The position numbers and the translations under genes were made by a program. Below, piece after piece: positions 1 through 13,644 of a DNA stretch of 20,042 nt; positions within the stretch are counted from its first letter, which is position 1, and each line of letters begins with the position of its first letter. The stretch covers positions 1 through 20,042 of the forward strand of contig CAMLNE010000029.1 of NCBI GenBank assembly GCA_946481265.1. The letters are read 5' to 3'. The notes below the pieces were generated by a model, which saw only the letters and a list, made by a program, of their open reading frames with translations, was not told the origin of the DNA and searched no databases. The stretch is from an uncultured Panacagrimonas sp. (lineage in GTDB: Bacteria > Pseudomonadota > Gammaproteobacteria > Nevskiales > Nevskiaceae).

Positions 1-12
1 CTCTTCCGATCT
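1..12. other. Residual Illumina adapter at the contig end
   Basis: The first 12 bases, CTCTTCCGATCT, are identical to the 3' end of the standard Illumina TruSeq/Nextera-era adapter that ends in GCTCTTCCGATCT. The coding frame of the following gene matches its paralogue from about base 25 onward, and nothing biological explains the first 12 bases. They should be treated as an untrimmed sequencing artefact and not as genomic sequence. Confidence 0.9.
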
Positions 13-540
13 CCGAACCCGGGCGGCCTGCCCCGCCGTGTCGTGGCAGCGGTCGACCCGGTCAATCCGGAACACGGCTCCGGACCGCTCAACGACGCCA
101 TTCTCGATATGGCGACGCTGCTCTCGCGCGCCAGCGGCGGACACGTGCGCGTCTTCTCCGCGTTTGCCGGCATCACGCCGGTGCTCAACGGCCTGGACCC
201 CGCCGCCATCCCCCTCGGCAGCATGCCCGAGGACCTCTACGAGTCCCTGCGCAAGGAACACCGTCACGCGCTGGACGTCCTGCTCGAGCGTCACGGCCTC
301 ACCGAGCACGACTCGGTGATCCTGTATGGCCCACCGGCCTACACCCTTCTCGACACCCTTGAGGGATACCGCGCGGAATTGCTGGTGGTCGGCACCATCC
401 GTCGTCGTGGCGTCGAGCGGCTGCTGATGGGCAGCACGGTGGAGCGCCTGATCGGCGAGACGCCCTGCGACCTGATCGCGGTCCCCGCGTCCAGATCCGC
501 ACCCGCACGCTCCCGCCGGACCGGGACGACGGCCAGCTGA
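13..540 (+). CDS. Tandem universal stress protein, C-terminal domain only (5' truncated by the window edge)
   Basis: This is the second Usp domain of a UspE-like two-domain universal stress protein; about 175 codons are visible. The frame is open leftward to the adapter, and the paralogue at 7467-8414 has about 140 further residues upstream, so the GTG at 43 is not a real start. Visible segments shared with that paralogue are GLPRxVVAAVDPxNPEHGSG near the left edge and VVGTIRRRG...LLMGSTVERLxGxxPCD near the C-terminus. The latter is the Usp nucleotide-binding loop (G-x2-G-x9-GS in ATP-binding members). Here the second glycine is arginine, so ATP binding is uncertain. Family members are cytoplasmic and linked to starvation, hypoxia and redox stress. 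The C-terminal tail (SRSAPARSRRTGTTAS) is low complexity and differs from the paralogue. The gene converges on the phosphorylase gene, with 55 bp between them. Confidence 0.88.
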   Translation, partial: PNPGGLPRRVVAAVDPVNPEHGSGPLNDAILDMATLLSRASGGHVRVFSAFAGITPVLNGLDPAAIPLGSMPEDLYESLRKEHRHALDVLLERHGLTEHDSVILYGPPAYTLLDTLEGYRAELLVVGTIRRRGVERLLMGSTVERLIGETPCDLIAVPASRSAPARSRRTGTTAS

Positions 541-595
541 CCCGCAGGTGGCTGGCGACCCGCGCCGGAAATGCGGGCCGTCGGCGCCGCCTGTG

Positions 596-2107
596 TCACG
601 CCGGCGCGAGTTCGATCAGGCGCGGATGGCGCTCCGCATAGGCCGTCGCGTAATCCAGCTCGCCCGGCGACTGCGCGTGGATCGTGTACAGGGGTTCGTC
701 GCGCAGGACCCGCTGGTCGAGGCGCACGTGCAGGACCAGACCCGCCGCCGACGACAGCGGCGCTCCGGCGAGCTTTGCCACGCGCGCCAGCCGGCGGTTG
801 TCGATCACCTGCACCACGCCGTCGCCGGCCGCCAGGACGTCGCGCTTCCAGGCGGCGCGTGGCGGCTGGCGCAGGCCACCCTGCGCCTCGCAGATGGCGA
901 CGAACTTGTGCCAGGCCGCGCCCCCCGACAGCAGGGACTGCGCGCGGGCGTATCCCTCCGGGCGGGCGGCGCGCCCGCCCTGCTCCAGCATGCGCGCCGC
1001 GATCTGCAGCGAGCGCTCCCGCAGTTCCGCCGGTGCGCCCGGTTCGTTGCGCAGTACCGCCAGCACGTCGAGCGCCTCCAGTGCCGGGCCGATGCCGCGC
1101 CCCACCGGCTGCATCCCGTCGGTCAGCATGGTTTCGACCTGCAGTCCGAATGCGCCGCCGAGTTCGATGAGCCGGCCAGCCAGCCGCTGCGCCGATGCAT
1201 CGGTGCGCAGCTTGGCCGTCGGTCCTACCGGAATGTCGATCATCAGGTGGGTGGAGCCGGCGGCCACCTTCTTGGAGATCACCGAGGCGGCGAGCTGCGC
1301 ATCGCTGTCGAAATCCAGTGAACGTTCCACCTGGATCAGCAGGTCGTCCGCCGGGCTCAGCGCCATCGCCCCGCCCCACACCATGCAGCCGCCCTCGCGT
1401 TCGACCACCCGGCGCATGTGCTCGAGGGTGAGCGCGACCGGCATCAGCGTCTCCATCGTGTCCGCCGTTCCGGCCGGCGAGGTGATGGCACGCGAGGAGG
1501 TCTTGGGTATGGTCAGGCCGGCGGCCGCGACGATCGCAACCACGATCGGCGTCGTGCGATTGCCCGGCAGGCCGCCGACGCAGTGCTTGTCCATGATCGG
1601 GCGCTGGTGCCAGGCCAGGCGCGTTCCCGCCTCGGTCATCGAGCGCGTCAGGTGCAGCGTCTCGGTCGCGTCCATGTGATCGCCCGCGCAGGCCGTCACG
1701 AACGCGGCGATCTGCACCGAGGAGTACAGGCCGGCGCTCAGATCGCGCACGATGGCATCGAGCGCGGCCCCGCTGAAGCGTCCCCCGTAGATCTTGCGAC
1801 GCACGGCGGAGAAGGACTCGACCGTGGCTGGATGCGACAGGCTCAGCAGATCGCCGTACCGCACGTCGAGCGCCTGCCAGGCCGACTCCGACAGCCCCGC
1901 CTCGCCCTCGCCGATCAGATCGCCATGCACGATGTTCAAGGTGGCCACGATCTCGCGCTCGCCGCTGGCCACGCAGACCCGCGACAACGCCCGCAGCCCC
2001 TCCGCCTTGCACACCGCGCATTCCTCTCTCAGGAACACCACGTGTTCGCGGAAGGTATCGATCCCCAGCCGGCGCGCGCGCAGCTGCGCCGGGGCCTGCG
2101 TACTCAC
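596..2107 (-). CDS. Thymidine phosphorylase family protein of the archaeal AMP-phosphorylase type
   Basis: A 503-aa nucleoside/nucleotide phosphorylase. Residues 1 to about 95 form the extra N-terminal domain of AMP phosphorylases, absent from the roughly 440-aa E. coli DeoA. The glycosyltransferase-4-like helical segment follows (about 103-170). The phosphate/substrate core has DKHCVGGLPGNRTT (173-186) and PKTSSRAITSPAGTADTME (201-219). These are the archaeal/AMP-phosphorylase forms and not the KHSTGGVGD form of DeoA. Family chemistry is phosphorolysis of a nucleoside, or NMP in the archaeal enzymes, to base plus ribose-1-phosphate or ribose-1,5-bisphosphate; the substrate here is inferred and untested. 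The GTG start at 2107 overlaps the stop of the beta-CASP RNase gene by 4 bases (GTGA), implying translational coupling. A longer leftward reading from 3214 only overlaps the RNase in another frame and is rejected. It probably belongs to the FNR-box transcript starting near 3813. Confidence 0.93.
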   Translation of the reverse strand: MSTQAPAQLRARRLGIDTFREHVVFLREECAVCKAEGLRALSRVCVASGEREIVATLNIVHGDLIGEGEAGLSESAWQALDVRYGDLLSLSHPATVESFSAVRRKIYGGRFSGAALDAIVRDLSAGLYSSVQIAAFVTACAGDHMDATETLHLTRSMTEAGTRLAWHQRPIMDKHCVGGLPGNRTTPIVVAIVAAAGLTIPKTSSRAITSPAGTADTMETLMPVALTLEHMRRVVEREGGCMVWGGAMALSPADDLLIQVERSLDFDSDAQLAASVISKKVAAGSTHLMIDIPVGPTAKLRTDASAQRLAGRLIELGGAFGLQVETMLTDGMQPVGRGIGPALEALDVLAVLRNEPGAPAELRERSLQIAARMLEQGGRAARPEGYARAQSLLSGGAAWHKFVAICEAQGGLRQPPRAAWKRDVLAAGDGVVQVIDNRRLARVAKLAGAPLSSAAGLVLHVRLDQRVLRDEPLYTIHAQSPGELDYATAYAERHPRLIELAPA

Positions 2108-3471
2108 CGGATGCTCACCGTCTGCAGGTAGTCGGGGACGATGCAGTTCCAGCCAAGGCGCTCCTCGATGTGCAGGCGCATCGCATCGGCGGCAGCCGGC
2201 TCGCCGTGCGTCAGGTAGACCGCTCGCGGCGGATGCATCGGCTGGAGCCAGTCGATCATCTCGGCGTAATCGGCGTGCGCCGAAAGGTTGCTCAGGGAAA
2301 CGACCTCCGCCCGCACGGCGACGTACTCGCCGTGGATCTTGAGCGAGTCGCTTCCGCCGAGAAGCGAGGCGCCGCGCGTGCCGCCAGCCTGGAAGCCGGT
2401 CAGGACGATCGCGTTGGAGGGATCCGGCGCGAAGTGTTTCAGGTGATGCACCACGCGTCCGCCGGTGGCCATCCCGCTGCCGGCGATGATGACCATCGGG
2501 CCCCGTCGCTGGTTGAGCGCGCGGGACTCGTCCACCGTGTTGACCATCTTGGCCACTCCGCACATCTGCGCGCACTGGGCGGCGTTCAGCCGGTGCTCGC
2601 GGTGGTGCCGTCGGTAGATGGAGGTCGCGTTGATCGCCATCGGGCTGTTGAGATAGATCGGCAGGTCGCGCGGGATCTCGCCGCGTTCGCGAAGCTGGTG
2701 CAGGAACCACAGCAGGGTCTGCGTGCGCCCGACCGAGAAGGCCGGCACGACCACCACGCCGCCGCGCGCGCAGGTCCGGCGCACCACTGCGCCCAGGGTT
2801 GCCGCCGGATCCTCGGTCTCGTGCAGGCGGTTGCCGTAGGTCGATTCGAGGACCAGCACGTCGGCGCGCGGCGCCGGTGCGGGACTGCGCATGATGGTGT
2901 CGTTGGGTCGTCCCAGGTCGCCGCTGAACAGCAGGCGGCGCTTGCCGTCGTCGAGCAGCACCATCGCGCTGCCGAGCAGGTGCCCCGCGGGCAGCAGACG
3001 GGCGACCAGGCCGGGCAAGGGCTCGAACGGCGCGTTGTAGTCGACCACCTCGAACTGCTCCAGCACGCGGATCGCGTCCGCCTCGGTGTACAGCGGCAGC
3101 GCCGGCTTGTGCTTCGAGTAGCTGCGTCGATTGGCGCGCTCGGCGTCCTCTTCCTGGATGCGCCCGCTGTCCGGTAACAGCAGCCGGCACAGGTCGCGGG
3201 TCGCCTCCGTGCACAGGATCCGGCCATCGAAGCCCCGGCGCATCAGCAGCGGCAGGTAACCGCTGTGGTCCAGGTGCGCATGGGTCAGCACCACCGACCC
3301 GAGTGCGGCCGGGGCGAACGGCGGGGCGCTCCAGTTGCGCAGGCGCAACTGCTTGTAGCCCTGGAAGAGCCCGCAGTCGACCAGCATCGAACCGCCGCGG
3401 TGCGTGACCCGGTAGCGCGAGCCCGTGACGGTGCCGGTGGCGCCGCAGAACTGCAGTTTCAGGCCGCTCAC
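2104..3471 (-). CDS. MBL-fold beta-CASP RNase (CPSF/YsgB-like metallohydrolase)
   Basis: A 455-aa metallo-beta-lactamase with an inserted beta-CASP domain, the family of CPSF-73-like and RNase J-like RNA-processing nucleases. The N-terminus starts with the family's GATGTVTGS strand. Metal ligands visible are H64-A-H-x-D68-H69, H164 (PAGHLLGSA) and D185 (SGDLG). The beta-CASP segment carries the conserved block IIAGSGMATGGR (328-339). Motif B is H399 in LSAHAD and motif C is H422 in THGE, so the active site looks intact. GTG at 3471 is the only sensible start, since no in-frame start precedes the GATG strand, although the ribosome site is weak. Its stop overlaps the phosphorylase start, and the 91-aa gene ends 43 bases upstream. 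Bacterial relatives act as endo- or exoribonucleases; whether this one makes NMPs for the neighbouring phosphorylase is inference. Confidence 0.94.
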   Translation of the reverse strand: MSGLKLQFCGATGTVTGSRYRVTHRGGSMLVDCGLFQGYKQLRLRNWSAPPFAPAALGSVVLTHAHLDHSGYLPLLMRRGFDGRILCTEATRDLCRLLLPDSGRIQEEDAERANRRSYSKHKPALPLYTEADAIRVLEQFEVVDYNAPFEPLPGLVARLLPAGHLLGSAMVLLDDGKRRLLFSGDLGRPNDTIMRSPAPAPRADVLVLESTYGNRLHETEDPAATLGAVVRRTCARGGVVVVPAFSVGRTQTLLWFLHQLRERGEIPRDLPIYLNSPMAINATSIYRRHHREHRLNAAQCAQMCGVAKMVNTVDESRALNQRRGPMVIIAGSGMATGGRVVHHLKHFAPDPSNAIVLTGFQAGGTRGASLLGGSDSLKIHGEYVAVRAEVVSLSNLSAHADYAEMIDWLQPMHPPRAVYLTHGEPAAADAMRLHIEERLGWNCIVPDYLQTVSIR

Positions 3472-3514
3472 CGCGTGGGCATGCCGGTTCCGGATCGGAT
3501 CATGACGGCGGGTG

Positions 3515-3790
3515 CTAGAACTTGCGCAGTGCGTCGCGCAGGTCCTGGTAGGTCTCGCGCAAGGTCTCCGCGGTCAGGCTCGCGGCGGCATTCAACTCGG
3601 CGCGGGAGAATTCCACCGAGGCGCGCAAGGCATCGATGTCGCCCTGGATGTCGGCCCAGCGAGCCTCGGCCTCGTGCCAGCGGTCCTTCATGTCGGCCTT
3701 GAACAAATGCGCCTGCAGCCTGAGTTCCTCGCGCAGCCCGGCGAGACTGTCGATCTCGCGCAGGGTGAACGGCGACTTGTTCTCTTTCAT
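3515..3790 (-). CDS. Small helical hypothetical protein (91 aa)
   Basis: The family is not recognised. The protein is charged, has no cysteines or membrane segment, and looks all-helical: MKENKSPFTLREIDSLAGL, then heptad-like stretches rich in Glu, Arg, Leu and Ala, including WHEAEARWADIQGDIDALR and ending in LRDALRKF. This suggests a coiled coil or helical bundle of about 70 residues. A GGAG ribosome site lies 5 bases before the ATG at 3790. It is the first gene of the leftward set and sits about 65 bp from the centre of an FNR-like palindrome. The role could be structural or regulatory; nothing in the sequence decides this. A longer frame over the same DNA (3468-3848) is arginine-rich and looks like a shadow. 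Confidence 0.75.
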   Translation of the reverse strand: MKENKSPFTLREIDSLAGLREELRLQAHLFKADMKDRWHEAEARWADIQGDIDALRASVEFSRAELNAAASLTAETLRETYQDLRDALRKF

Positions 3791-3847
3791 GGCAACTCCG
3801 GTCTGGGGGCAATGGGGTCAGTGTCGGCTCGCAACATCTCCGGGGCA

Positions 3848-3861
3848 TTGACCCAGGTCAA
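3848..3861. promoter_or_regulatory. FNR/DNR-type operator (leftward transcript)
   Basis: The sequence TTGACCCAGGTCAA is a perfect inverted repeat: TTGAC-N4-GTCAA, with arms extending to 6 bp, TTGACC/GGTCAA. It fits the CRP/FNR superfamily half-site spacing (consensus TTGAT-N4-ATCAA; DNR/NNR-type sites often carry TTGAC). Its centre lies 64.5 bp from the ATG of the 91-aa gene. A class II position (-41.5) would put the transcription start near 3813, with a GACACT -10-like hexamer at 3825-3820 on the minus strand. Confidence 0.65.
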
Positions 3862-3906
3862 GCACGCGTGCGGCCTTGCCGGCCCGCGATGCCCAGCGCG
3901 TGGAGC

Positions 3907-3920
3907 CTGATCTGCATCAG
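3907..3920. promoter_or_regulatory. FNR/ANR-type operator (rightward transcript)
   Basis: The sequence CTGATCTGCATCAG has the core TGAT-N4-ATCA of the FNR/ANR consensus with perfect symmetry; only the outermost T/A pair is changed to C/G. The centre is 65.5 bp from the ATG of the cytochrome gene at 3979. Class II spacing puts a start near 3955 and a -10-like CAGTAT at 3943-3948. It forms a pair with the site at 3848-3861. Confidence 0.6.
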
Positions 3921-3978
3921 TGCAAGATGCGACGCTGCGATGCAGTATTGGTCATCATCACCATCGCGAAGGTCCGCC

Positions 3979-4797
3979 ATGCCGCAACCCCGTGCCGTCC
4001 CCGAACCACCGCAGCAGCATGACGAGATCATTGGGTACCGCGTCTGGGATCTGCCGGTCCGCCTGTTTCACTGGACCAACGTGCTGTGCATCCTGGCGCT
4101 GGCCGGCATCGGCCTGGTGATCCTCAACGGCAAGGCGCTCGGCCTGTCCGCCGAGGGCAAGATCCTGCTCAAGACCCTGCACGTCCAGGTCGGCTACGTG
4201 TTCGCGATCAACCTGGCGCTGCGCCTGCTGTGGGCATTCGTCGGGCCGCCCTCTGCACGCTGGCGCGCGATGCTGCCCTGCGGTGCCGGTTACCTGCGTG
4301 ACCTGCGTCGCCATCTGGTCGCAATGGCGACCGGGGCGCGCGAGGCGCATCTCGGCCACAACCCGCTCGGCCGCCTGGCCATCGTCGCCCTCATGATCGT
4401 GCTGCTGTCGCAGGCGATCACCGGCCTGATCCTGGGTGGCACCGATCTCTACTTTCCTCCTTTCGGTTCGATCATCGCCGGGCAGGTCGCCGCGCCCGGG
4501 GTCGATCCGGCGACCCTGGTTCCCAACGCGTCCGAACTGGTCGACCCGGTCGCCTACGCGGCCATGCGCGAGTGGCGTGGGCCGATCGTGAGCCTTCATC
4601 TCTACGCGTTCTACGTGCTGATCGGGCTGGTGGTGCTGCACGTCGCCGGTGTGGTGGTGGCCGAGGTGCGCGAGCGCTCGGGCCTGGTTTCCGCGATGTT
4701 CACCGGTACCAAGTTCATCGCAGGCACTCCCGCCGACGCGCCCACCGGCAGGACCGCCGGAGACGATCGTCCGGAACCCCCGCGCGGACACGGCTGA
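3979..4797 (+). CDS. Cytochrome b561-type diheme membrane subunit
   Basis: A 272-aa integral membrane cytochrome of the bacterial b561/Ni-Fe hydrogenase b-subunit family, which passes electrons between the quinone pool and a partner protein. Four hydrophobic helices lie at about 33-50, 66-90, 132-152 and 203-232. Candidate heme ligands sit where the family has them: H31 (RLFHW, helix 1), H68 (helix 2), and H207 and H221, 14 residues apart in the last helix. GHNPLG (126-131) is also typical. ATG 3979 is preferred because AAGG lies 6 bases upstream. The longer frame from 3868 would run over the FNR-like box. Its stop is 3 bases before the ATPase GTG, so the two are co-transcribed. No hydrogenase or other redox partner is in the window, so the electron partner is unknown. 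Confidence 0.9.
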   Translation: MPQPRAVPEPPQQHDEIIGYRVWDLPVRLFHWTNVLCILALAGIGLVILNGKALGLSAEGKILLKTLHVQVGYVFAINLALRLLWAFVGPPSARWRAMLPCGAGYLRDLRRHLVAMATGAREAHLGHNPLGRLAIVALMIVLLSQAITGLILGGTDLYFPPFGSIIAGQVAAPGVDPATLVPNASELVDPVAYAAMREWRGPIVSLHLYAFYVLIGLVVLHVAGVVVAEVRERSGLVSAMFTGTKFIAGTPADAPTGRTAGDDRPEPPRGHG

Positions 4798-4800
4798 GCC

Positions 4801-7383
4801 GTGTCGCCCTCCGGCATGGACCCGGCCGGTCTGAGCGCGGAGCAGGCCGCACGCCAGCTGCAGGCGGACGGGCACAACGACGTGCCCTCGGCCGAGCGAC
4901 GCGAGTACTGGCGCATCGCCCTGGAGATGCTGTGCCAGCCGATGTTCGCGATGCTGATCGGCGGCGGCCTGATCTACCTCCTGCTGGGCGATCCGATCGA
5001 GGCGCTCCTGCTGATGGTGTTCGCCGGCCTGTCGATCGCCATCGGCCTGATCCAGACGTCGCGCAGCGAGCGCGTGCTGCAGGCGCTGCGGACGCTGGCC
5101 AGCCCGCGGGCCGGCGTGATCCGCGATGGCACGCGCCAGCTGATCCCCGGACGCGACGTCGTCCGCGGCGACCTGCTGCTGGTGGCCGAGGGCGATCGCG
5201 TGGCGGCGGATGCCGACCTGCTCGAGGCCCAGGATCTGCTGATCGACGAATCGCTGCTGACGGGCGAGTCGGTCGCCGTCACCAAGCGCGCGCCGACCCC
5301 CGACGACAGGCCATCGGCCGGACCCGCAACCGACGATGCCGCGGCCGCGCTGCGCCTGCAGGCGGGCACGCTGGTCGTGCGCGGCAGCGGCTTGGCGCGC
5401 GTCACCGCGACGGGAGCACACAGCCAGATCGGCAGCATCGGCCGCGACCTTCAGGACATCCGCACCGGGCAACCCCGGCTGCAGCAGCAGATCCGCTGGC
5501 TGGTGCGCGACTTCGCGCTGGCCGGCGCAGTGGTCGGCGTGGGTGTGGTGCTGCTGCAGGGCCTGGTCCACGGCTCCTGGCTGCAGGCCTTGCTGTCGGG
5601 TATCGCGGTCGGAATGTCCTTGCTGCCGGAGGAATTCGCCCTGGTGCTCGCCGTGTTCACGGCGATGGGGGCGTGGCGCATCTCGCGAGCGCGCGTGCTC
5701 ACGCGTCGCGCCTCGGCCATCGAGACCCTGGGTGCCACCACGGTGCTGTGCACCGACAAGACGGGGACCCTGACGGAAAACCGGATGCGCGTTGCCAGCC
5801 TGGGCGCCGGCGGTGCGCAATGGGACGGCGGCGCGCTGTCCGACGCCGCCCTGATCGGCCTGCTGGGCGTCGCCCGGCTGGCCTGCGAGCCGCGTCCGAC
5901 CGATCCGATGGACCTGGCCATCCACGCGCTGTCCGACGCGCATGCGCAGGCGGGCGCCGTACCGGCCGCGCCGGGTGAACGGCTGCGCAGCTACGGCCTG
6001 CGTCCCGATCTGTTCGCGGTGGCCAACGTGTTCGCCGGACCTGGCGCCGGGACCGCCACCGCCTGTGCCAAGGGCGCACCGGAAGCCATCGGCGAGCTGT
6101 GCCGCATGGATGCCTCCCAGCTTGCGCAGATCCGCGCGCAGGCCGACGTGCTGGCGCACCGCGGGATCCGTGTCCTCGGCGTGGCCAGTGCGCGTGTGGC
6201 GCGCCCTGCCGATGCCTCGGCATGGCCCGGGTCCCTGCGCGAGATACCGTTCACGTTCGCCGGACTGATCGGCTTCGCCGACCCGTTGCGCGCCAATGTG
6301 CCCGACGCGATCGCCGAATGCCGCGAGGCGGGCATCCGCGTGCTGATGATCACCGGCGACTATCCGGTCACCGCCGCGGCGATCGCCCGGCAGGCGGGAC
6401 TGGATGCCGACCGGGTGCTGACCGGCGACGAGCTGGCGTCCCTGTCCGACGAACAGCTCGTCGCCGAGCTGCGCAAGGTCAGCGTGTTCGCCCGCGTGCG
6501 CCCCGCGCAGAAGCTGCGCATCGTGCAGTCCCTGCAGGCCGGCGGCGCGGTGGTCGCGATGACCGGCGATGGGGTCAACGATGCGCCGGCGATCAAGGCC
6601 GCCGACATCGGCGTCGCGATGGGCGGACGCGGCACCGAGGTGGCACGGGAGGCCTCGTCGATCGTCCTGCTGGATGACGACTTCGGCTCCATCGTGAAGA
6701 CCATCCGCCTGGGCCGGCGCATCCACGACAACCTGCGCAAGGCCATCGAGTACATCGTCGCGGTCCACATCCCCCTCGCCGGCATGGCGGTGCTGCCGCT
6801 GCTGTTCGGGATGCCGATGCTGCTGACTCCGGTCCTGATCGCGTTCATGGAAATGGTGATCGACCCTGCCTGCTCGGTGGTCTTCGAGGCGGAGCCCGAA
6901 GAGGACGACGTGATGCGGCGCCCGCCACGCGACCCCGGCCTGCCGCTGCTGCAGGCACGACGCGTCATGTGGGCGGTGCTGCAAGGCGTGGTGGCGCTCG
7001 GCCTGGTCAGCGCGACGCTGATCGTGGCCGCCCGCATGGGACTTGCCGAGGACGATCTGCGCGCACTGGTCTTCACCGCGCTGGTGCTGATCAACGTCGG
7101 CCTGATCCTGGTCAATCGCTCGCTGTCAGGCCCCCTGCTCAGCAGCCTGCGCCACCGCAACCGGCCGCTGTGGGTCCTGCTCGGCGGCGTGACGGGGATC
7201 ATGCTGATCGTGATGGTCTGGCCGGCGGCGCGCGAGCTGTTCGGCCTGGGCCAGCCGCACGCGGGGATCCTGGCGGCGTGCGCGCTGGTCGGCGTGCTCA
7301 GCCTGCTCCTGCTGGAGGCGCTCAAGGCAGTCTGGTTCCACGTGCGTGTCCCGACCGCCGGAAGCGCGCGCCCTGCCGGCTGA
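4801..7383 (+). CDS. P-type cation-transporting ATPase (P2-like, PEEF motif)
   Basis: An 860-aa ATP-driven cation pump of the inner membrane. Order: cation-ATPase N domain (about 8-60), first helix pair, actuator domain with TGES (154-157), helices 3-4 with LLPEEFALVL (274-283), phosphorylation loop DKTGTLT (D319), then the hinge TGDGVNDAPA and further helices ending near the C-terminus. Helix 4 has PEEF in place of the PEGLP of Ca2+ pumps. Helix 6 keeps an acidic residue in EMVIDPACS. There is no CPC motif and no metal-binding N-domain, so it is not a heavy-metal pump; the ion cannot be named. GTG 4801 is taken as the start, but ATG 4816 is almost as likely and neither has a strong ribosome site. 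It lies between the cytochrome (3-base gap) and the UspE-like gene (83-base gap), a grouping that suggests ion homeostasis under oxygen limitation. Confidence 0.92.
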   Translation: MSPSGMDPAGLSAEQAARQLQADGHNDVPSAERREYWRIALEMLCQPMFAMLIGGGLIYLLLGDPIEALLLMVFAGLSIAIGLIQTSRSERVLQALRTLASPRAGVIRDGTRQLIPGRDVVRGDLLLVAEGDRVAADADLLEAQDLLIDESLLTGESVAVTKRAPTPDDRPSAGPATDDAAAALRLQAGTLVVRGSGLARVTATGAHSQIGSIGRDLQDIRTGQPRLQQQIRWLVRDFALAGAVVGVGVVLLQGLVHGSWLQALLSGIAVGMSLLPEEFALVLAVFTAMGAWRISRARVLTRRASAIETLGATTVLCTDKTGTLTENRMRVASLGAGGAQWDGGALSDAALIGLLGVARLACEPRPTDPMDLAIHALSDAHAQAGAVPAAPGERLRSYGLRPDLFAVANVFAGPGAGTATACAKGAPEAIGELCRMDASQLAQIRAQADVLAHRGIRVLGVASARVARPADASAWPGSLREIPFTFAGLIGFADPLRANVPDAIAECREAGIRVLMITGDYPVTAAAIARQAGLDADRVLTGDELASLSDEQLVAELRKVSVFARVRPAQKLRIVQSLQAGGAVVAMTGDGVNDAPAIKAADIGVAMGGRGTEVAREASSIVLLDDDFGSIVKTIRLGRRIHDNLRKAIEYIVAVHIPLAGMAVLPLLFGMPMLLTPVLIAFMEMVIDPACSVVFEAEPEEDDVMRRPPRDPGLPLLQARRVMWAVLQGVVALGLVSATLIVAARMGLAEDDLRALVFTALVLINVGLILVNRSLSGPLLSSLRHRNRPLWVLLGGVTGIMLIVMVWPAARELFGLGQPHAGILAACALVGVLSLLLLEALKAVWFHVRVPTAGSARPAG

Positions 7384-7451
7384 TCACCAGAACCGGGAGA
7401 CCAGGCCGGCGTCAGCAGCGCTGGGTGGGATTCGTCACACTGGCCATGCCC

Positions 7452-7458
7452 AAGGAGG
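7452..7458 (+). promoter_or_regulatory. Strong ribosome binding site of the UspE-like gene
   Basis: AAGGAGG lies 8 bases before ATG 7467. This fixes the start of the tandem Usp at 7467 and excludes the in-frame ATG at 7446, which would lie upstream of the site. Confidence 0.85.
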
Positions 7459-7466
7459 TCAATGCC

Positions 7467-8414
7467 ATGACCCAGATCCGTCGCATCCTGCTCGTGCTGG
7501 ATCCTTCCCTGTCGCGCACGCCTGCGGTCGAACGTGCGCAGGCCCTCGCCCGCCACACGCAGGCCGAACTGTGGCTCGGCCTGTTCGATCGCGGCTCCCG
7601 GCTGGGACTGCCCGGCCTCCACGATTCCGCCGAGGGACGCGGCCTCGAAGGCCGGATGCGTGATCGATCGAGTGCGCGGCTGCTCGAACTGCAGGCTGAA
7701 CTGGCCGCAACCGGCCTGAGCGTGCATGCCATCGACGACCGCGAGCACGCGGGCGCCGAGCGCATCGCCGAGCAGATCAGGCAGCACGAGATCGATCTTG
7801 TCATCAAGGATGTCGGTCATGAATCGGCGCTGCGCCGGCTGGTCTTCCTGCCGCTGGACTGGGAGATTCTTCGCAGCTGCCCGGTGCCGGTCTGGATGGC
7901 GGGTTCCGCCGCGATGGGACTGCCACGCAATGTCGTCGCCGCGGTGGACCCGCTGAATCCGGAACACGGTTCAGGCCCGCTCAACGACGCGATCCTGGGC
8001 ATGGCACGCGCGCTGGCGGATCCCGACGCCGCGCGGCTTCGCGTGTTCACCGCCTTCGCCGGCGTGCCGACGACGCTGCAGGCGCTGGACCCGATCGGCA
8101 TCTCGATCAACGCGTCCTACGAGGAACTGCACGAGGACCTGCGCCGGCAGCATCGCTGCGCCCTGACCGCCCTGCTGCAGCGCCAGGGCCTGGGGGAGCA
8201 CGATGCGGTCGTCCTGTTCGGGCCGCCGGTCCCTGCCCTGCTCGAGGCGATCGAGGACAACCGGCCCGACGTGCTGGTGGTGGGCACGATCCGCCGCCGC
8301 GGCATCGATCGCCTGCTGATGGGGAGTACCGTCGAGCGCCTGGTCGGCCAGGCGCCCTGCGACATCATCGCGGTGCCGGTGTCGGCGTCGAACACCGAGG
8401 CAGACGCGTCCTGA
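7467..8414 (+). CDS. UspE-like tandem universal stress protein
   Basis: A 315-aa protein with two Usp domains, about residues 1-146 and 150-305, the size of E. coli UspE (about 316 aa). Domain 1 starts with the family strand RRILLVLDPS, and domain 2 with NVVAAVDPLNPEHGSG. The nucleotide-loop region of domain 2 is GTIRRRGIDRLLMGSTVERL (273-292), with arginine at the place of the second glycine of the ATP-binding signature. Domain 1 lacks a recognisable loop of this type. It follows the P-type ATPase by 83 bases and is probably the last gene of the FNR-box transcript. The C-terminal domain is a close paralogue of the truncated gene at 13-540. Usp proteins act in the cytoplasm in stress survival; the exact role here is unknown. 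Confidence 0.92.
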   Translation: MTQIRRILLVLDPSLSRTPAVERAQALARHTQAELWLGLFDRGSRLGLPGLHDSAEGRGLEGRMRDRSSARLLELQAELAATGLSVHAIDDREHAGAERIAEQIRQHEIDLVIKDVGHESALRRLVFLPLDWEILRSCPVPVWMAGSAAMGLPRNVVAAVDPLNPEHGSGPLNDAILGMARALADPDAARLRVFTAFAGVPTTLQALDPIGISINASYEELHEDLRRQHRCALTALLQRQGLGEHDAVVLFGPPVPALLEAIEDNRPDVLVVGTIRRRGIDRLLMGSTVERLVGQAPCDIIAVPVSASNTEADAS

Positions 8415-10263: not shown

Positions 10264-10521
10264 TTACCGTGCCGCTTTTCTTGCGGGCTTCTTTGCAGCC
10301 TTCTTTGCAGCCTTCTTCGCGGGAGCCTTCTTCACGGCCTTCTTCGCAACCTTCTTCACCGCCTTCTTCGCGGGAGCCTTCTTCACGGCCTTCTTGGCAA
10401 CCGCCTTCTTCACTGCCTTCTTCGCAACCTTCCTGGCAGCCTTCTTCGCTACCTTCTTTGCAGGTGCCTTGCGGGCTGCCTTTTTTGCGACGGGCTTCTT
10501 CACTTTCTTCTTTGCGGCCAT
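10264..10521 (-). CDS. Histone H1-like lysine/alanine repeat protein (85 aa)
   Basis: An extremely basic small protein: 36 lysines and 4 arginines in 85 residues, with no acidic residue or cysteine. It is built from KKAVKKAPAKKAVKK-type units, the composition of eukaryotic H1 tails and of bacterial H1-like/AlgP-like proteins. Such proteins bind and compact DNA, and this one probably coats the nucleoid. The ATG at 10521 has TGAGGA 5 bases upstream, so the 22-residue upstream extension (to 10587) is rejected. The only folded-looking part is absent: the whole chain is repeat. The DNA itself carries a 41-bp direct repeat (see 10310-10401), so the length is expected to vary between strains. It is transcribed alone between a weak promoter and a terminator. 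Alternative: a ribosome- or RNA-binding basic tail protein. Confidence 0.88.
   Translation of the reverse strand: MAAKKKVKKPVAKKAARKAPAKKVAKKAARKVAKKAVKKAVAKKAVKKAPAKKAVKKVAKKAVKKAPAKKAAKKAAKKPARKAAR
10310..10401. repeat. 41-bp imperfect direct repeat inside the histone-like gene
   Basis: The segment 10310-10350 recurs at 10361-10401 with a single mismatch (C/G at the 36th base) and an offset of 51 bp, i.e. 17 codons, so slippage keeps the reading frame. Shorter GCCTTCTT units fill the rest of the gene. Confidence 0.8.
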
Positions 10522-10558
10522 AGGATCCTCAACATGTCGTGGGTGTGAACGCGCGGGG

Positions 10559-10587
10559 ATTGTCGCGTCGCACGACTGATTACGCAA
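10559..10587 (-). promoter_or_regulatory. Possible promoter of the histone-like gene
   Basis: On the minus strand TTGCGT (10587-10582) and GACAAT (10564-10559) are separated by 17 bp, 38 bp ahead of the ATG. They match consensus at 3 of 6 and 4 of 6 bases. An 11-bp palindrome AAGAATTTCTT (10587-10597) touches the -35 element. Confidence 0.3.
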
Positions 10588-10898: not shown

Positions 10899-13268
10899 TC
10901 AGTCTGCAGCCCCGCTTTGGCCGCGCAGGCGCAGGGCGTTGGCCACCACCGAGGCCGAGCTCAGGCTCATCGCCAGTGCCGCGAGCATCGGCGACAGCAG
11001 GATGCCGAAGAGCGGATACAGGACGCCCGCCGCGACCGGAACGCCCATCCCGTTGTAGACCAGCGCGAAGCCGAGGTTCTGCTTCATGTTGCGTACCGTG
11101 GCGTGCGACAGCTCGATGGCGCGCACGATGCCGAGCAGGTCGCCGCGCACCAGGGTGACGTGCGCGCTGTTCATCGCCACGTCGGTGCCGGTCCCCATCG
11201 CGATACCCACGTCGGCGGCTGCCAATGCCGGTGCGTCGTTGATGCCATCGCCCGCCATCGCCACGCGCCGTCCGCGTGCCTTGAAGTCCGCCACCAGGCG
11301 CGCCTTGCCTTCCGGGCGGATCTCGCCGTGGACGTCGTCGATGCCCAGGCGCTGCGCCACGGCACGGGCCGTGGTGAGCCCGTCACCGGTGGCCATGACC
11401 ACGTGGATGCCCAGGGCGCGCAGCTTATCGAGCGCCTCGGGCGTCGACGTCTTGACCGGATCGGCCACCGTGACGAGGCCGGCAAGCTGCCCGTCGACGG
11501 CAAGGAACATCACGCTGCCGCCCTCGGCGCGACGCGCTTCGGCGGATGCCAGCAGGCTCGACACGTCGACTCCGATCTCCTGCATCAGCGCGGTGTTGCC
11601 CAGGTGCAGTCGGCGGCCGTCGACCGTGCCGCGCACGCCGATGCCGGTCACCGACTCGAAGTCCTCCACGGCCGACAGCGCGACTCCCTGCTGGCGCGCC
11701 TGCGCGACGATGGCCTCGGCGAGTGGATGCTCGCTGCCCTGGTCGAGGCTGGCCGCGTCGCGCAGGACGCGCTCGGCGGTGTGTCCCTCTGCCGCATGCA
11801 CGCTGTGGAAGGCCGGCCGGCCCTGCGTCAGGGTGCCGGTCTTGTCGACGATCAGCGTGTCGATGCGGCGCAGCATCTCGATCGCCGCCGCATCGCGGAA
11901 CAGCACGCCGGACGTCGCCGCGCGCCCGGTCGCCACCATGATCGACATGGGCGTTGCCAGGCCAAGCGCACAGGGACAGGCGATGATCAGCACCGCCACG
12001 GCGTTGATGAAGCCGTACACCCATGCAGGTTCGGGCCCGAACAGGCCCCAGGCCAGCAGGCTGAGGATCGCGACGCCGATCACGCCCAGCACGAACCAGA
12101 AGCTCACCGCGTCGGCCATTCGCTGCATCGGCGCACGCGATCGCTGCGCCTGCGCCACCATCTGGACGATCTGCGATAGCAGCGTGCCCGCCCCCACCTT
12201 CTGTGCACGGATCACCAGGCTGCCGTTGCCGTTGAGCGTCGCGCCGATGACGGCGTCACCGGGCTTGCGCCGGACCGGCAGCGGCTCGCCGGTGAGCATC
12301 GACTCATCGAGGTGACTCTCGCCCTCGAGCACCACGCCGTCGACCGGCACCTTCTCGCCCGGACGCACGCGCAGGCGATCGCCAACCTGCACCTTGTCGA
12401 GCGCCACGTCGGTCTCGCCTCCGTCCGCGTCCAGCCGGCGCGCCGTCTTCGGCGACAGGCCCAGCAGCGAACGGATCGCGGCTGAGGTCTGCGAGCGTGC
12501 CCGGAGCTCGAGCATCTGGCCGACCAGGGTCAGCGAGACGATCGCCGCGGCCGCCTCGAAGTACACGCCGATCCGCCCATGCGCGACGAAGCGCTCGGGG
12601 AACAGGCCGGGTGCGATGGTCGCCACCACGCTGTAGGCATAGGCGGAGATCACCCCCAGGCCGATCAGCGTGAACATGTTCGGGCTGCGGTTGCGCACCG
12701 ACTGCAGACCGCGCTCCAGGAAGGGCCGCCCCGCCCACAGCACCACCGGCGTGGCGAGCACCAGCTCCAGCCAGGACTGCGTCGCCATGTCCATCAGGGC
12801 GAACGAATGGCCGAACATCGCCAGGCCGACCACGATCACGGTCAGCGGCAGCGTCCAGACGAAGCGCCGGGTGAAATCGCGCAGCTCCGGGTTGTCGTCG
12901 TCCGCATCGGCGCTGGGCAGTTCCGGTTCCAGGGCCATGCCGCATTTCGGGCAACTGCCCTGGTGGTCCTGGCGTATCTCGGGATGCATCGGACAGGTGT
13001 AGACGGTGCCCGGCACCGTGGCGGCAGCCGTCTGCGACGGTCGGGGCGCCAGGTAGTGCGCGGGATCGGCCGCGAAGCGGTCATGGCAGCGCTGGCTGCA
13101 GAAGTGATAGCGCTGCCCTTCGTGCACCAGCGAGCGGGCGCTGCCCGGATCGACGCTCATGCCGCAGACCGGATCCTTTGCGGTGGCCGGCGGGGCCCCC
13201 GCGGCATTGCCATGGCAGTGGGGCGGTGCGCCAGCGTGCTCGTTCGCGCCGTGTGGGTGACCGCTCAT
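10899..13268 (-). CDS. copA: Copper-exporting P1B-type ATPase with YHS and HMBD domains
   Basis: A 789-aa inner-membrane Cu(+) (or Ag(+)) efflux ATPase. The N-terminus is His-rich ([13 protein letters not shown]...HCHG). It is followed by a YHS domain (KDPVCGM 31-37, YHFCSQRC 54-61) and a heavy-metal binding domain (YTCPMHPEI 90-98, CPKCGM 106-111) in place of the usual CxxC ferredoxin-like HMA domains. The membrane core has TGEP (326-329), CPC (431-433) and the phosphorylation site DKTGT (D475). Then come an HP pair in GSEHPLAEA and the hinge GDGINDAPA. The YN of helix 7 and the M-x2-SS pattern of helix 8 indicate P1B-1 Cu(+) selectivity. ATG 13268 has GGAG 8 bases upstream, so a 17-residue longer start at 13319 is rejected. 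No metal regulator or chaperone gene is adjacent, and no CueR box was seen. Confidence 0.93.
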
Positions 13269-13644
13269 GTCGATGACTCCGGATCCAGATCGGGGGGACA
13301 GAAAGATGCGGCCGAACATGCGGATTGCAACGTCGCCACGCGCATGGCCACATCGAATGCAGGGACTCTAGACGATGGCCCTGCCGGAAGCCGTGGCGCG
13401 TCGATGTGGATCCCGCACGCATCGCGGACGCGGTGGTGCGCCGTGTTCATGCCGGCCGTCGGCCGTTCCGGGCCAATGGTCGGCACGAGGTCAGAACGCT
13501 CCCAGGCGCGGGTCAGATGTGGCCAAGATCAAGGACCGGCGGCTGGGCTACAAGGATCCAGCGTGCCGGGCCTGCGCCATGTCGACGGGCGCGAAACCTG
13601 AACGTGAAGGCGTCCCCGGCGGGGACCAGAACTGGAGGAAGGAA
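13269..13644. other. Divergent intergenic region copA / monooxygenase
   Basis: These 376 bp separate two divergent genes and must hold both promoters. Open frames here have poor codon use and no recognisable product. A TTGCAA-like -35 on the minus strand near 13330 has only a poor -10 partner. A small perfect palindrome GGCCG-T-CGGCC sits at 13454-13464, and a leader hairpin lies before the monooxygenase (13612-13626). No CueR-type dyad for copA was found. Confidence 0.6.
13612..13626 (+). promoter_or_regulatory. Leader hairpin before the monooxygenase ribosome site
   Basis: GTCCCC-GGC-GGGGAC is a perfect 6-bp GC stem ending 7 bases before the GGAGG ribosome site (13634-13638) of the monooxygenase, whose ATG is at 13645. 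It could protect the 5' end of the mRNA or affect initiation; function is unproven. Confidence 0.4.

What the first reader, a model, noticed from the sequence alone, without database searches (positions are those of the whole stretch)
596..3790. Possible RNA-to-ribose-phosphate salvage module: helical protein, beta-CASP RNase and NMP-type phosphorylase
A beta-CASP RNase with a complete active site is translationally coupled (GTGA overlap) to a phosphorylase that has the extra N-terminal domain and the GLPGNRTT and SRAITSPAGTADT motifs of archaeal AMP phosphorylases. If the RNase releases 5'-NMPs, the phosphorylase could split them into base and ribose-1,5-bisphosphate during oxygen limitation. 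In archaea that product feeds type III Rubisco; here no Rubisco or R15P isomerase is in view. A different sink, such as PRPP formation by a PhnN-like kinase or PRPP synthase, would be a new bacterial route. The 91-aa protein may be a helper.
Basis: partly seen in the sequence, partly recalled or inferred. Interest (0 to 1): 0.7.

Follow-up and report, generated by a model that had tools for sequence, protein, structure and literature searches.

The report
Bacterial nucleotide-splitting enzyme misnamed thymidine phosphorylase
A bacterial enzyme that databases call thymidine phosphorylase more likely splits RNA-derived nucleotides into a base and a doubly phosphorylated ribose, because in relatives it is often tied or even fused to PRPP-making types of enzyme, which could give oxygen-starved bacteria a way to recycle RNA.

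Summary
Observation confirmed: a 91-aa helical protein, a beta-CASP metallo-hydrolase and a 'thymidine phosphorylase' (TP) lie on one strand, the last two sharing GTGA. Eleven residues that I recall as the archaeal AMP (NMP) phosphorylase site are identical in the window TP. In 398 sampled Pseudomonadota genomes, 45 hold such a TP, at 48 places: at 41 a paralogous PRPP-synthase-like gene (PRK07199, altered PDxGG loop) lies directly 3' or about 4 kb off; at 4 TP is fused to PhnN, known for ribose-1,5-bisphosphate (R15P) -> PRPP. Those 4 genomes lack the PRS-like gene; a nadC-type gene precedes the fusion at 5 of 5 loci seen. This argues that bacterial TPs make R15P, with PRPP chemistry as sink. 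The beta-CASP gene is near on the same strand at 20 of 48 places. Published Bradyrhizobium data show the TP/PRS/MBL genes microoxia-induced and (TP, MBL) FixK2-dependent; the window has one FNR-type palindrome. Against: no PRS or PhnN gene in the window (contig end, genome not held), 17 of 35 alphaproteobacterial TP genomes have neither PRS-like nor fusion, and no activity was tested.

The parts
596..2107 (-). type-2 'thymidine phosphorylase' (NF003338/TIGR02645), proposed NMP phosphorylase making R15P, 503 aa
2104..3471 (-). beta-CASP MBL-fold metallo-hydrolase with RMMBL domain, probable RNase, 455 aa
   Evidence: nearest solved relative by sequence is RNase TTHA0252
2104..2107 (-). GTGA stop/start overlap between MBL and TP
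3515..3790 (-). 91-aa protein predicted as a single helix; 11 database relatives found; function unknown
3848..3861 (.). FNR/FixK/Anr-type palindrome TTGACCCAGGTCAA between the module and the divergent cytochrome b gene (consensus recalled)
   Evidence: only exact match in the window; with one mismatch allowed the window has 2 matches, no more than chance (mean 0.65, 17 of 100 shuffles reach 2)
43..540 (+). universal stress protein, open at the contig start and convergent with TP, so no PRS-like gene follows TP here
3868..4797 (+). cytochrome b561-type protein, divergent neighbour (longest ORF; the true start may lie later)
7470..8414 (+). second universal stress protein, part of the neighbourhood

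Best explanation
The window's TP is a bacterial nucleoside-5'-monophosphate phosphorylase: NMP + Pi -> base + ribose-1,5-bisphosphate (R15P) (inferred). The co-translated beta-CASP enzyme is an RNase that helps supply 5'-NMPs (inferred, weaker). In relatives R15P passes to PRPP-type chemistry through one of two interchangeable partners: a PhnN domain fused to the phosphorylase (R15P + ATP -> PRPP + ADP, the known PhnN reaction) or a dedicated PRPP-synthase paralogue (PRK07199) encoded directly after it. The paralogue keeps the Lys/Arg pair that I recall as catalytic but has a changed PDxGG loop; I propose that it moves a phosphoryl group to or from R15P (R15P + ADP -> PRPP + AMP, or R15P + AMP -> R5P + ADP). 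The module is switched on when oxygen is short and salvages ribose phosphate from RNA, some of it perhaps for phosphoketolase and acetate kinase. Shown: homology, site conservation, linkage and fusion in relatives and, in Bradyrhizobium, regulation (published). Inferred: every reaction. Not shown for the window: a partner enzyme, and regulation.
For: Site: 11 positions recalled as AMP-binding or catalytic in TkAMPpase (G168, S194-S199, T203, D256, S264, K288) are identical in the window TP; each is kept in 70 or 71 of 71 bacterial TPs (many of them related) and 4 of 4 fusions. Linkage: PRS-like directly 3' at 39 of 48 places, about 4 kb upstream at 2; gap between the two HMM matches 12-98 bp in the 34 pairs measured. 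Co-occurrence in 398 genomes: TP 45, PRS-like 41, both 40, Fisher p = 3e-48, not corrected for kinship; gammaproteobacterial sample 55 of 59 TP genomes. Fusion: PhnN and TP in one frame in 4 of the 5 TP genomes without PRS-like and in none of the 40 with it, p = 3e-5; TIGR02322 cut-off passed in all 4. A search with the PhnN part among long proteins gave 200 clusters at E <= 1e-10; of the 120 listed, 119 also hold a TP part with SRAIT. nadC-type gene directly upstream at 5 of 5 fusion loci seen (2 scanned, both over the nadC cut-off). PRS-like E170/S171/W174/R130 (58-61 of 61) against G/G/R/Q in 20 of 20 housekeeping PRS, with K191, R193, D218, D219 unchanged. Regulation: bll3117 (TP), bll3116 (PRS), bll3115 (MBL) rise in microoxia at protein and transcript level; bll3117 and bll3115 fall in a fixK2 mutant, as do phosphoketolase bll2518 and acetate kinase bll2517. 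FNR-type sites at 8 of 98 operon starts against 21 of 1534 control ORFs, p = 2e-4.
Against: I saw no measured activity for any TP of this proteobacterial group. In the alphaproteobacterial sample 17 of 35 TP genomes have neither PRS-like nor fusion (12 of them at most 2.5 Mb as held); 3 of the 17 have a separate PhnN over cut-off. PRS-like without such a TP: G406 (1 of 41) and G464 (1 of 17). In the gamma sample 4 of 59 TP genomes lack PRS-like (G688, G750, G772, G839), among them G839, whose MBL-TP pair resembles the window's. TP is under the AMP_phos cut-off. The window shows no PRS-like or PhnN gene. Rubisco occurs in 22 of 45 TP genomes. In the Bradyrhizobium table the three genes show no rise in soybean bacteroids and are not marked as FixK2 targets of the older study. 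Of the 8 operon starts with FNR-type sites two share one site and two are near-identical loci. Residue roles in TP and PRS are recalled.
Confidence: 0.66

Rival explanations
1. The enzyme is a true thymidine/pyrimidine nucleoside phosphorylase with an extra N-terminal domain, as the databases name it; the neighbours only reflect general nucleotide stress metabolism.
For: NCBIfam NF003338 and TIGR02645 name it (putative) thymidine phosphorylase; pyrimidine phosphorylase domains are found.
Against: The nearest solved relative is the archaeal enzyme deposited as 'putative thymidine phosphorylase' (4ga5), since shown to be an AMP phosphorylase (340 bits against 120 or less for nucleoside phosphorylases; that 4ga5 is this T. 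kodakarensis enzyme is recalled); recalled NMP-site residues are kept; fusion to an R15P kinase is hard to explain for a thymidine phosphorylase.
Confidence: 0.12
2. The phosphorylase is an NMP phosphorylase, but the PRS-like neighbour is an ordinary low-oxygen isoform of PRPP synthase (R5P + ATP -> PRPP) that does not touch R15P.
For: PRS homology and the recalled catalytic Lys/Arg are kept; TIGR01251 cut-off passed by the 3 scanned.
Against: It is a second copy beside another PRS in 39 of the 40 TP genomes that have it; canonical PDxGG is PDxES in 58 of 61, with the E in 61 of 61; in the phylum sample it is exchanged for a fused PhnN, an R15P enzyme.
Confidence: 0.3
3. The module runs in the synthetic direction: R15P is supplied by the partner and the phosphorylase joins bases to it, restoring NMPs.
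For: In T. kodakarensis R15P is described as a node used from NMPs and towards NMPs (PMC9700705, passages).
Against: An RNase-type gene near TP at 20 of 48 places and FixK2 dependence shared with phosphoketolase and acetate kinase point to breakdown, but only indirectly.
Confidence: 0.15
4. R15P goes to Rubisco as in archaea.
For: Rubisco-family large subunit in 22 of 45 TP genomes, form not typed.
Against: No archaeal R15P isomerase over cut-off in 45 TP genomes; the 22 weaker matches score 138-187 bits against a cut-off of 314; 23 of 45 have no Rubisco match.
Confidence: 0.05

Closest known systems
Archaeal AMP/NMP phosphorylase (T. kodakarensis TkAMPpase, PDB 4ga4-4ga6) and the NMP shunt of the pentose bisphosphate pathway
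   Same: Homology over 473 residues with the N-terminal domain, GGxPGN and SRAITSxAGTAD motifs, recalled AMP-site residues
   Different: Under the AMP_phos model cut-off; no R15P isomerase over cut-off in 45 relatives; partner is PRS-like or PhnN
PhnN, ribose 1,5-bisphosphate phosphokinase (E. coli phosphonate pathway)
   Same: The fused N-terminal domain passes TIGR02322 in 4 of 4 fusions of the phylum sample
   Different: Joined to a phosphorylase and preceded by a nadC-type gene; phosphonate genes nearby were not searched for
PRPP synthase (nearest solved by sequence: 1u9y)
   Same: Homology and recalled catalytic residues
   Different: PRK07199 subfamily with DPHLHR and GPDxESxxW in place of the canonical loops; a second copy beside another PRS in 39 of 40 genomes
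beta-CASP RNase TTHA0252 / aCPSF1 / type VII Cas14
   Same: MBL + beta-CASP + RMMBL with the expected motifs
   Different: The three NCBIfam equivalogs matched are all below cut-off; product unknown
FixK2/Anr-type oxygen-limitation regulon
   Same: TP, PRS and MBL genes of B. diazoefficiens are microoxia-induced, predicted operon with FixK2 box; one palindrome in the window
   Different: Regulation is not tested for the window organism; such sites mark a minority of related loci

Membership tests
NMP (AMP) phosphorylase | extra N-terminal domain before the NP-II core | tested here: met
   residues 22-494 align with 4ga5; nucleoside phosphorylases align only from about residue 100
NMP (AMP) phosphorylase | AMP-site residues G168, SRAITS, T203, D256, S264, K288 (recalled list) | tested here: met
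   all identical in the window TP
NMP (AMP) phosphorylase | score over the TIGR03327 AMP_phos cut-off | tested here: not met
   462 bits, cut-off 535; hence not filed as AMP_phos, only said to work like an NMP phosphorylase
NMP (AMP) phosphorylase | phosphorolysis of 5'-NMPs to R15P | not testable with these tools
   needs an enzyme assay
TIGR02645/NF003338 type-2 'thymidine phosphorylase' | score over curated cut-off | tested here: met
   591 and 651 bits against 434.6 and 434
archaeal pentose bisphosphate pathway | R15P isomerase in the genome | tested here: not met
   0 of 45 related TP genomes over cut-off; the window's own genome is not held, so for it untested
archaeal pentose bisphosphate pathway | type III Rubisco | tested here: inconclusive
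   Rubisco family in 22 of 45 relatives, form not typed
PRPP-forming R15P salvage (PhnN-type), in relatives | R15P kinase joined to the phosphorylase | tested here: met
   fusion at 4 of 48 places
PRPP-forming R15P salvage (PhnN-type), in the window | R15P kinase or PRS-like gene beside the phosphorylase | tested here: not met
   none in the 20 kb; contig ends 0.6 kb after TP and the genome is not held
beta-CASP RNase | MBL, beta-CASP and RMMBL domains with metal-binding motifs | tested here: met
beta-CASP RNase | cleaves RNA to 5'-NMPs | not testable with these tools
   needs an assay

The most novel reading that the evidence does not exclude
Pseudomonadota carry a Rubisco-free pentose bisphosphate route: RNA -> NMP -> R15P by a misnamed 'thymidine phosphorylase', then R15P handled by a new enzyme activity, a PRPP-synthase paralogue (PRK07199) that transfers a phosphoryl group between R15P and adenylates and stands in for PhnN; it is induced by oxygen lack and may return part of the phosphate energy of RNA as ADP or ATP before phosphoketolase.
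Probability: 0.35. Interest if true: 0.82.

Novelty: new variant of a known kind. Interest (0 to 1): 0.7.

Why it matters
R15P metabolism is described mainly for archaea and some candidate phyla, tied to Rubisco, and in E. coli for PhnN (passages). If this reading is right, about one in nine sampled Pseudomonadota genomes (45 of 398) carries an R15P-forming enzyme under a wrong name, a PRPP-synthase subfamily has an unassigned reaction, and bacteria have an oxygen-regulated way to reuse RNA ribose. Each step is testable with three recombinant proteins.

Tried and rejected
Rubisco as sink: no archaeal R15P isomerase over cut-off in 45 TP genomes; rejected as a general answer. ModD before the fusion: first read so; the scan of 2 of the 5 genes puts them over the nadC cut-off and under modD, hence 'nadC-type'. 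91-aa protein: no Pfam or NCBIfam family, two PHROG matches at E 0.04-0.06; function left open. Promoter and terminator scan of 500-4100 found none. B. cenocepacia micro-oxia and PhaR papers: the terms searched did not bring up these genes. A search for names of PRS loops found no paper, so loop names and the roles of K191/R193 are recalled. Searches with 'ribose 1 5-bisphosphate' matched nothing with that term in the rows listed, probably because of the comma in print. In one search the automatic fusion flag caught 2 of 4; the other two rest. In one search three upstream MBL genes (L090, L123, L132) are labelled MBL3; the split 12 upstream / 8 downstream is. In one search the motif filter kept 20 of 30 housekeeping PRS; 61 linked PRS were compared. 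Confidence was lowered from 0.68 to 0.66 after adding the Bradyrhizobium bacteroid and target columns and the palindrome control.
Full report
What is there. The window carries three genes on the minus strand: a 91-aa protein (3515-3790), a beta-CASP metallo-hydrolase (2104-3471) and a 'thymidine phosphorylase' (596-2107), the last two sharing GTGA. The window begins with CTCTTCCGATCT, which I recognise from memory as the tail of an Illumina adapter, so base 1 is probably a raw contig end. Downstream of TP an open universal stress gene points the other way. No PRS-like or PhnN gene was found in the window. The window's own genome is not held. The nearest named relative of its TP is from Panacagrimonas perspica, 75% identity (120 of a capped list seen), and a quick tree of 106 rows groups the two (97% local support); the host is probably a relative of the Nevskia/Solimonas group.

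The phosphorylase. It matches the archaeal AMP phosphorylase 4ga5 over residues 22-494 at 340 bits; nucleoside phosphorylases match from about residue 100 at 120 bits or less. The PDB still names 4ga5 'putative thymidine phosphorylase'; that the T. kodakarensis enzyme was misnamed so and splits NMPs to R15P is stated in PMC8376864 (passages); that 4ga5 is this enzyme is recalled. The 11 residues that I recall as AMP-binding or catalytic are identical in the window TP; each is kept in 70 or 71 of 71 bacterial TPs and in 4 of 4 fusions, while in 4 archaeal loci S194, A196 and I197 vary. It is under the cut-off of the AMP_phos model, so I do not file it as AMP_phos; I say that it probably works like one.

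Neighbours in other genomes. In an even draw of 398 Pseudomonadota genomes, 45 have such a TP (E <= 1e-100; 44 over the cut-off), at 48 places. The surroundings of all 48 were fetched (46; 2), some cut by contig ends, and scanned by script. A gene of the PRK07199 subfamily of PRPP synthases follows TP directly at 39 places and lies about 4 kb upstream at 2 (L130, L131). Of the other 7, four are PhnN-TP fusions (L098-L101), one is a second TP copy in a genome whose other copy has PRS-like (L089), one has an internal stop (L102) and one lies at a contig end (L103). The beta-CASP gene is near on the same strand at 20 of 48 places, 12 upstream and 8 downstream, and at one place on the other strand.

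Co-occurrence. TP in 45, PRS-like in 41 (E <= 1e-60), both in 40 of 398 genomes, Fisher p = 3e-48, uncorrected for kinship. In a gammaproteobacterial draw TP is in 59 of 274; PRS-like (over 200 bits) is in 51 of the 55 newly tested and in the 4 known. In an alphaproteobacterial draw 35 of 240 have such a TP (I used the score gap from 192 to 155 bits as the border and did not score each with the HMM): 2 fusions and 33 stand-alone, of which 16 have PRS-like; 17 have neither. Of those 17, three have a PhnN over cut-off, in one case (G565) divergent from and next to TP. G406 (1 of 41) and G464 (1 of 17) have PRS-like without such a TP. Twelve of the 17 are at most 2.5 Mb as held; G565, G631, G539, G626 and G502 are larger. 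The draws share some genomes.

The fusion. Four of the five TP genomes without PRS-like have PhnN and TP in one open frame; none of the 40 with PRS-like does (p = 3e-5). A protein search limited to the PhnN part and to long proteins found 200 clusters at E <= 1e-10, of which 120 were listed; 119 of these 120 also hold a TP part with SRAIT, PhnN first in 118. A nadC-type gene lies directly before the fusion at the 5 loci looked at, L098-L101 and L165; the two scanned pass the nadC cut-off. PhnN makes PRPP from R15P (PMC9700705, passage), and NadC uses PRPP (general knowledge). A domain that consumes R15P, fused to the phosphorylase, is the best single argument that the phosphorylase makes R15P. 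In the tree the four fusions form one clade among PRS-linked TPs.

The PRS-like enzyme. All 45 TP genomes have a PRPP-synthase family match; 39 of the 40 with PRS-like have another one besides (the exception is G259). Against 20 housekeeping enzymes, 61 linked ones keep K191, R193, D218, D219 and H127 but have E170 (61), S171 (58), W174 (60) and R130 (61) where the housekeeping ones have G, G, R and Q in 20 of 20. The changed loop is, from memory, the one that holds the pyrophosphate. With its exchange for PhnN this suggests an R15P-related reaction; that is inference.

Regulation. In Bradyrhizobium diazoefficiens bll3117 (TP), bll3116 (PRS) and bll3115 (MBL) rise at 0.5% oxygen at protein (log2 2.1, 4.4, 2.9) and transcript level (5.1-, 7.7-, 15.4-fold); the same table shows no rise for them in bacteroids and does not mark them as FixK2 targets of an older study (PMC6515984, section 18 part 1 and passages). 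A later paper gives bll3117-bll3116-bll3115 as predicted operon with a FixK2 box at -74, and falls of 6.6-fold (bll3117) and 30.6-fold (bll3115) in a fixK2 mutant, with phosphoketolase bll2518 and acetate kinase bll2517 in the same table (PMC9104804, one passage). The window has one exact TTGAYNNNNRTCAA palindrome, TTGACCCAGGTCAA at 3848-3861, between the 91-aa gene and the cytochrome b gene; with one mismatch allowed the window is no richer than shuffles. Such sites lie at 8 of 98 operon starts against 21 of 1534 control ORFs (p = 2e-4); two of the 8 share one site and two are near-identical loci. Phosphoketolase or acetate kinase matches lie near TP at 5 of the 48 places (L001, L093, L109, L130, L131; some phosphoketolase scores are weak) and at some other loci such as L006 and L224.

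The 91-aa protein. Eleven relatives were found. Three of them have a longest contig of the same length as a close TP relative (P0002/P0137, P0004/P0140, P0010/P0136), which suggests but does not prove linkage. It is predicted as one helix.

In print. Searches of open-access papers showed, in the listings and passages that I saw, no paper that states this route; many hits were not opened and subscription journals are not covered. Archaeal AMP/NMP phosphorylases and those of candidate phyla are in print (passages), and a WOR-3 paper is in the listings. The fusion is in databases under the name of one half or the other, and UniRef calls some 'Multifunctional fusion p...'.

Verdict. Observation confirmed; interpretation partly supported, strengthened on the PRPP side and weaker on the RNase side. 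A new variant of a known kind.

Noticed in passing
window 1-12: CTCTTCCGATCT at the very start looks like an untrimmed Illumina adapter tail (recalled), so the contig end is artificial and the first USP gene is cut.
   Followed up: partly
window 10264-10587 (-): Lysine/alanine-rich repeat ORF that looks like a histone H1-like protein (my reading, no family search).
   Followed up: no
L098, L099, L100, L101, L165: A nadC-type gene lies directly before each PhnN-TP fusion looked at, hinting that the fusion supplies PRPP for NAD synthesis.
   Followed up: partly
L167, L176, L191: In some alphaproteobacterial genomes a lone TP lies beside a dnaK- or grpE-like ORF (my reading of the sequence starts) without PRS-like or fused PhnN; its role there is unexplained.
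   Followed up: no
L102 (G278) 6099-7973: A type-2 TP with an internal stop and a long branch, next to a beta-CASP gene on the other strand; perhaps decaying.
   Followed up: no
window 10899-13319 (-) and 4801-7383 (+): Copper-type and cation-type P-type ATPases near the module; an ORF cluster that reads like heavy-metal P-type ATPases recurs within 6 kb of TP at 16 of 92 loci (my reading of its representative).
   Followed up: partly
G177, G282, G327, G638, G695: Five genomes hold two type-2 TP copies each.
   Followed up: no
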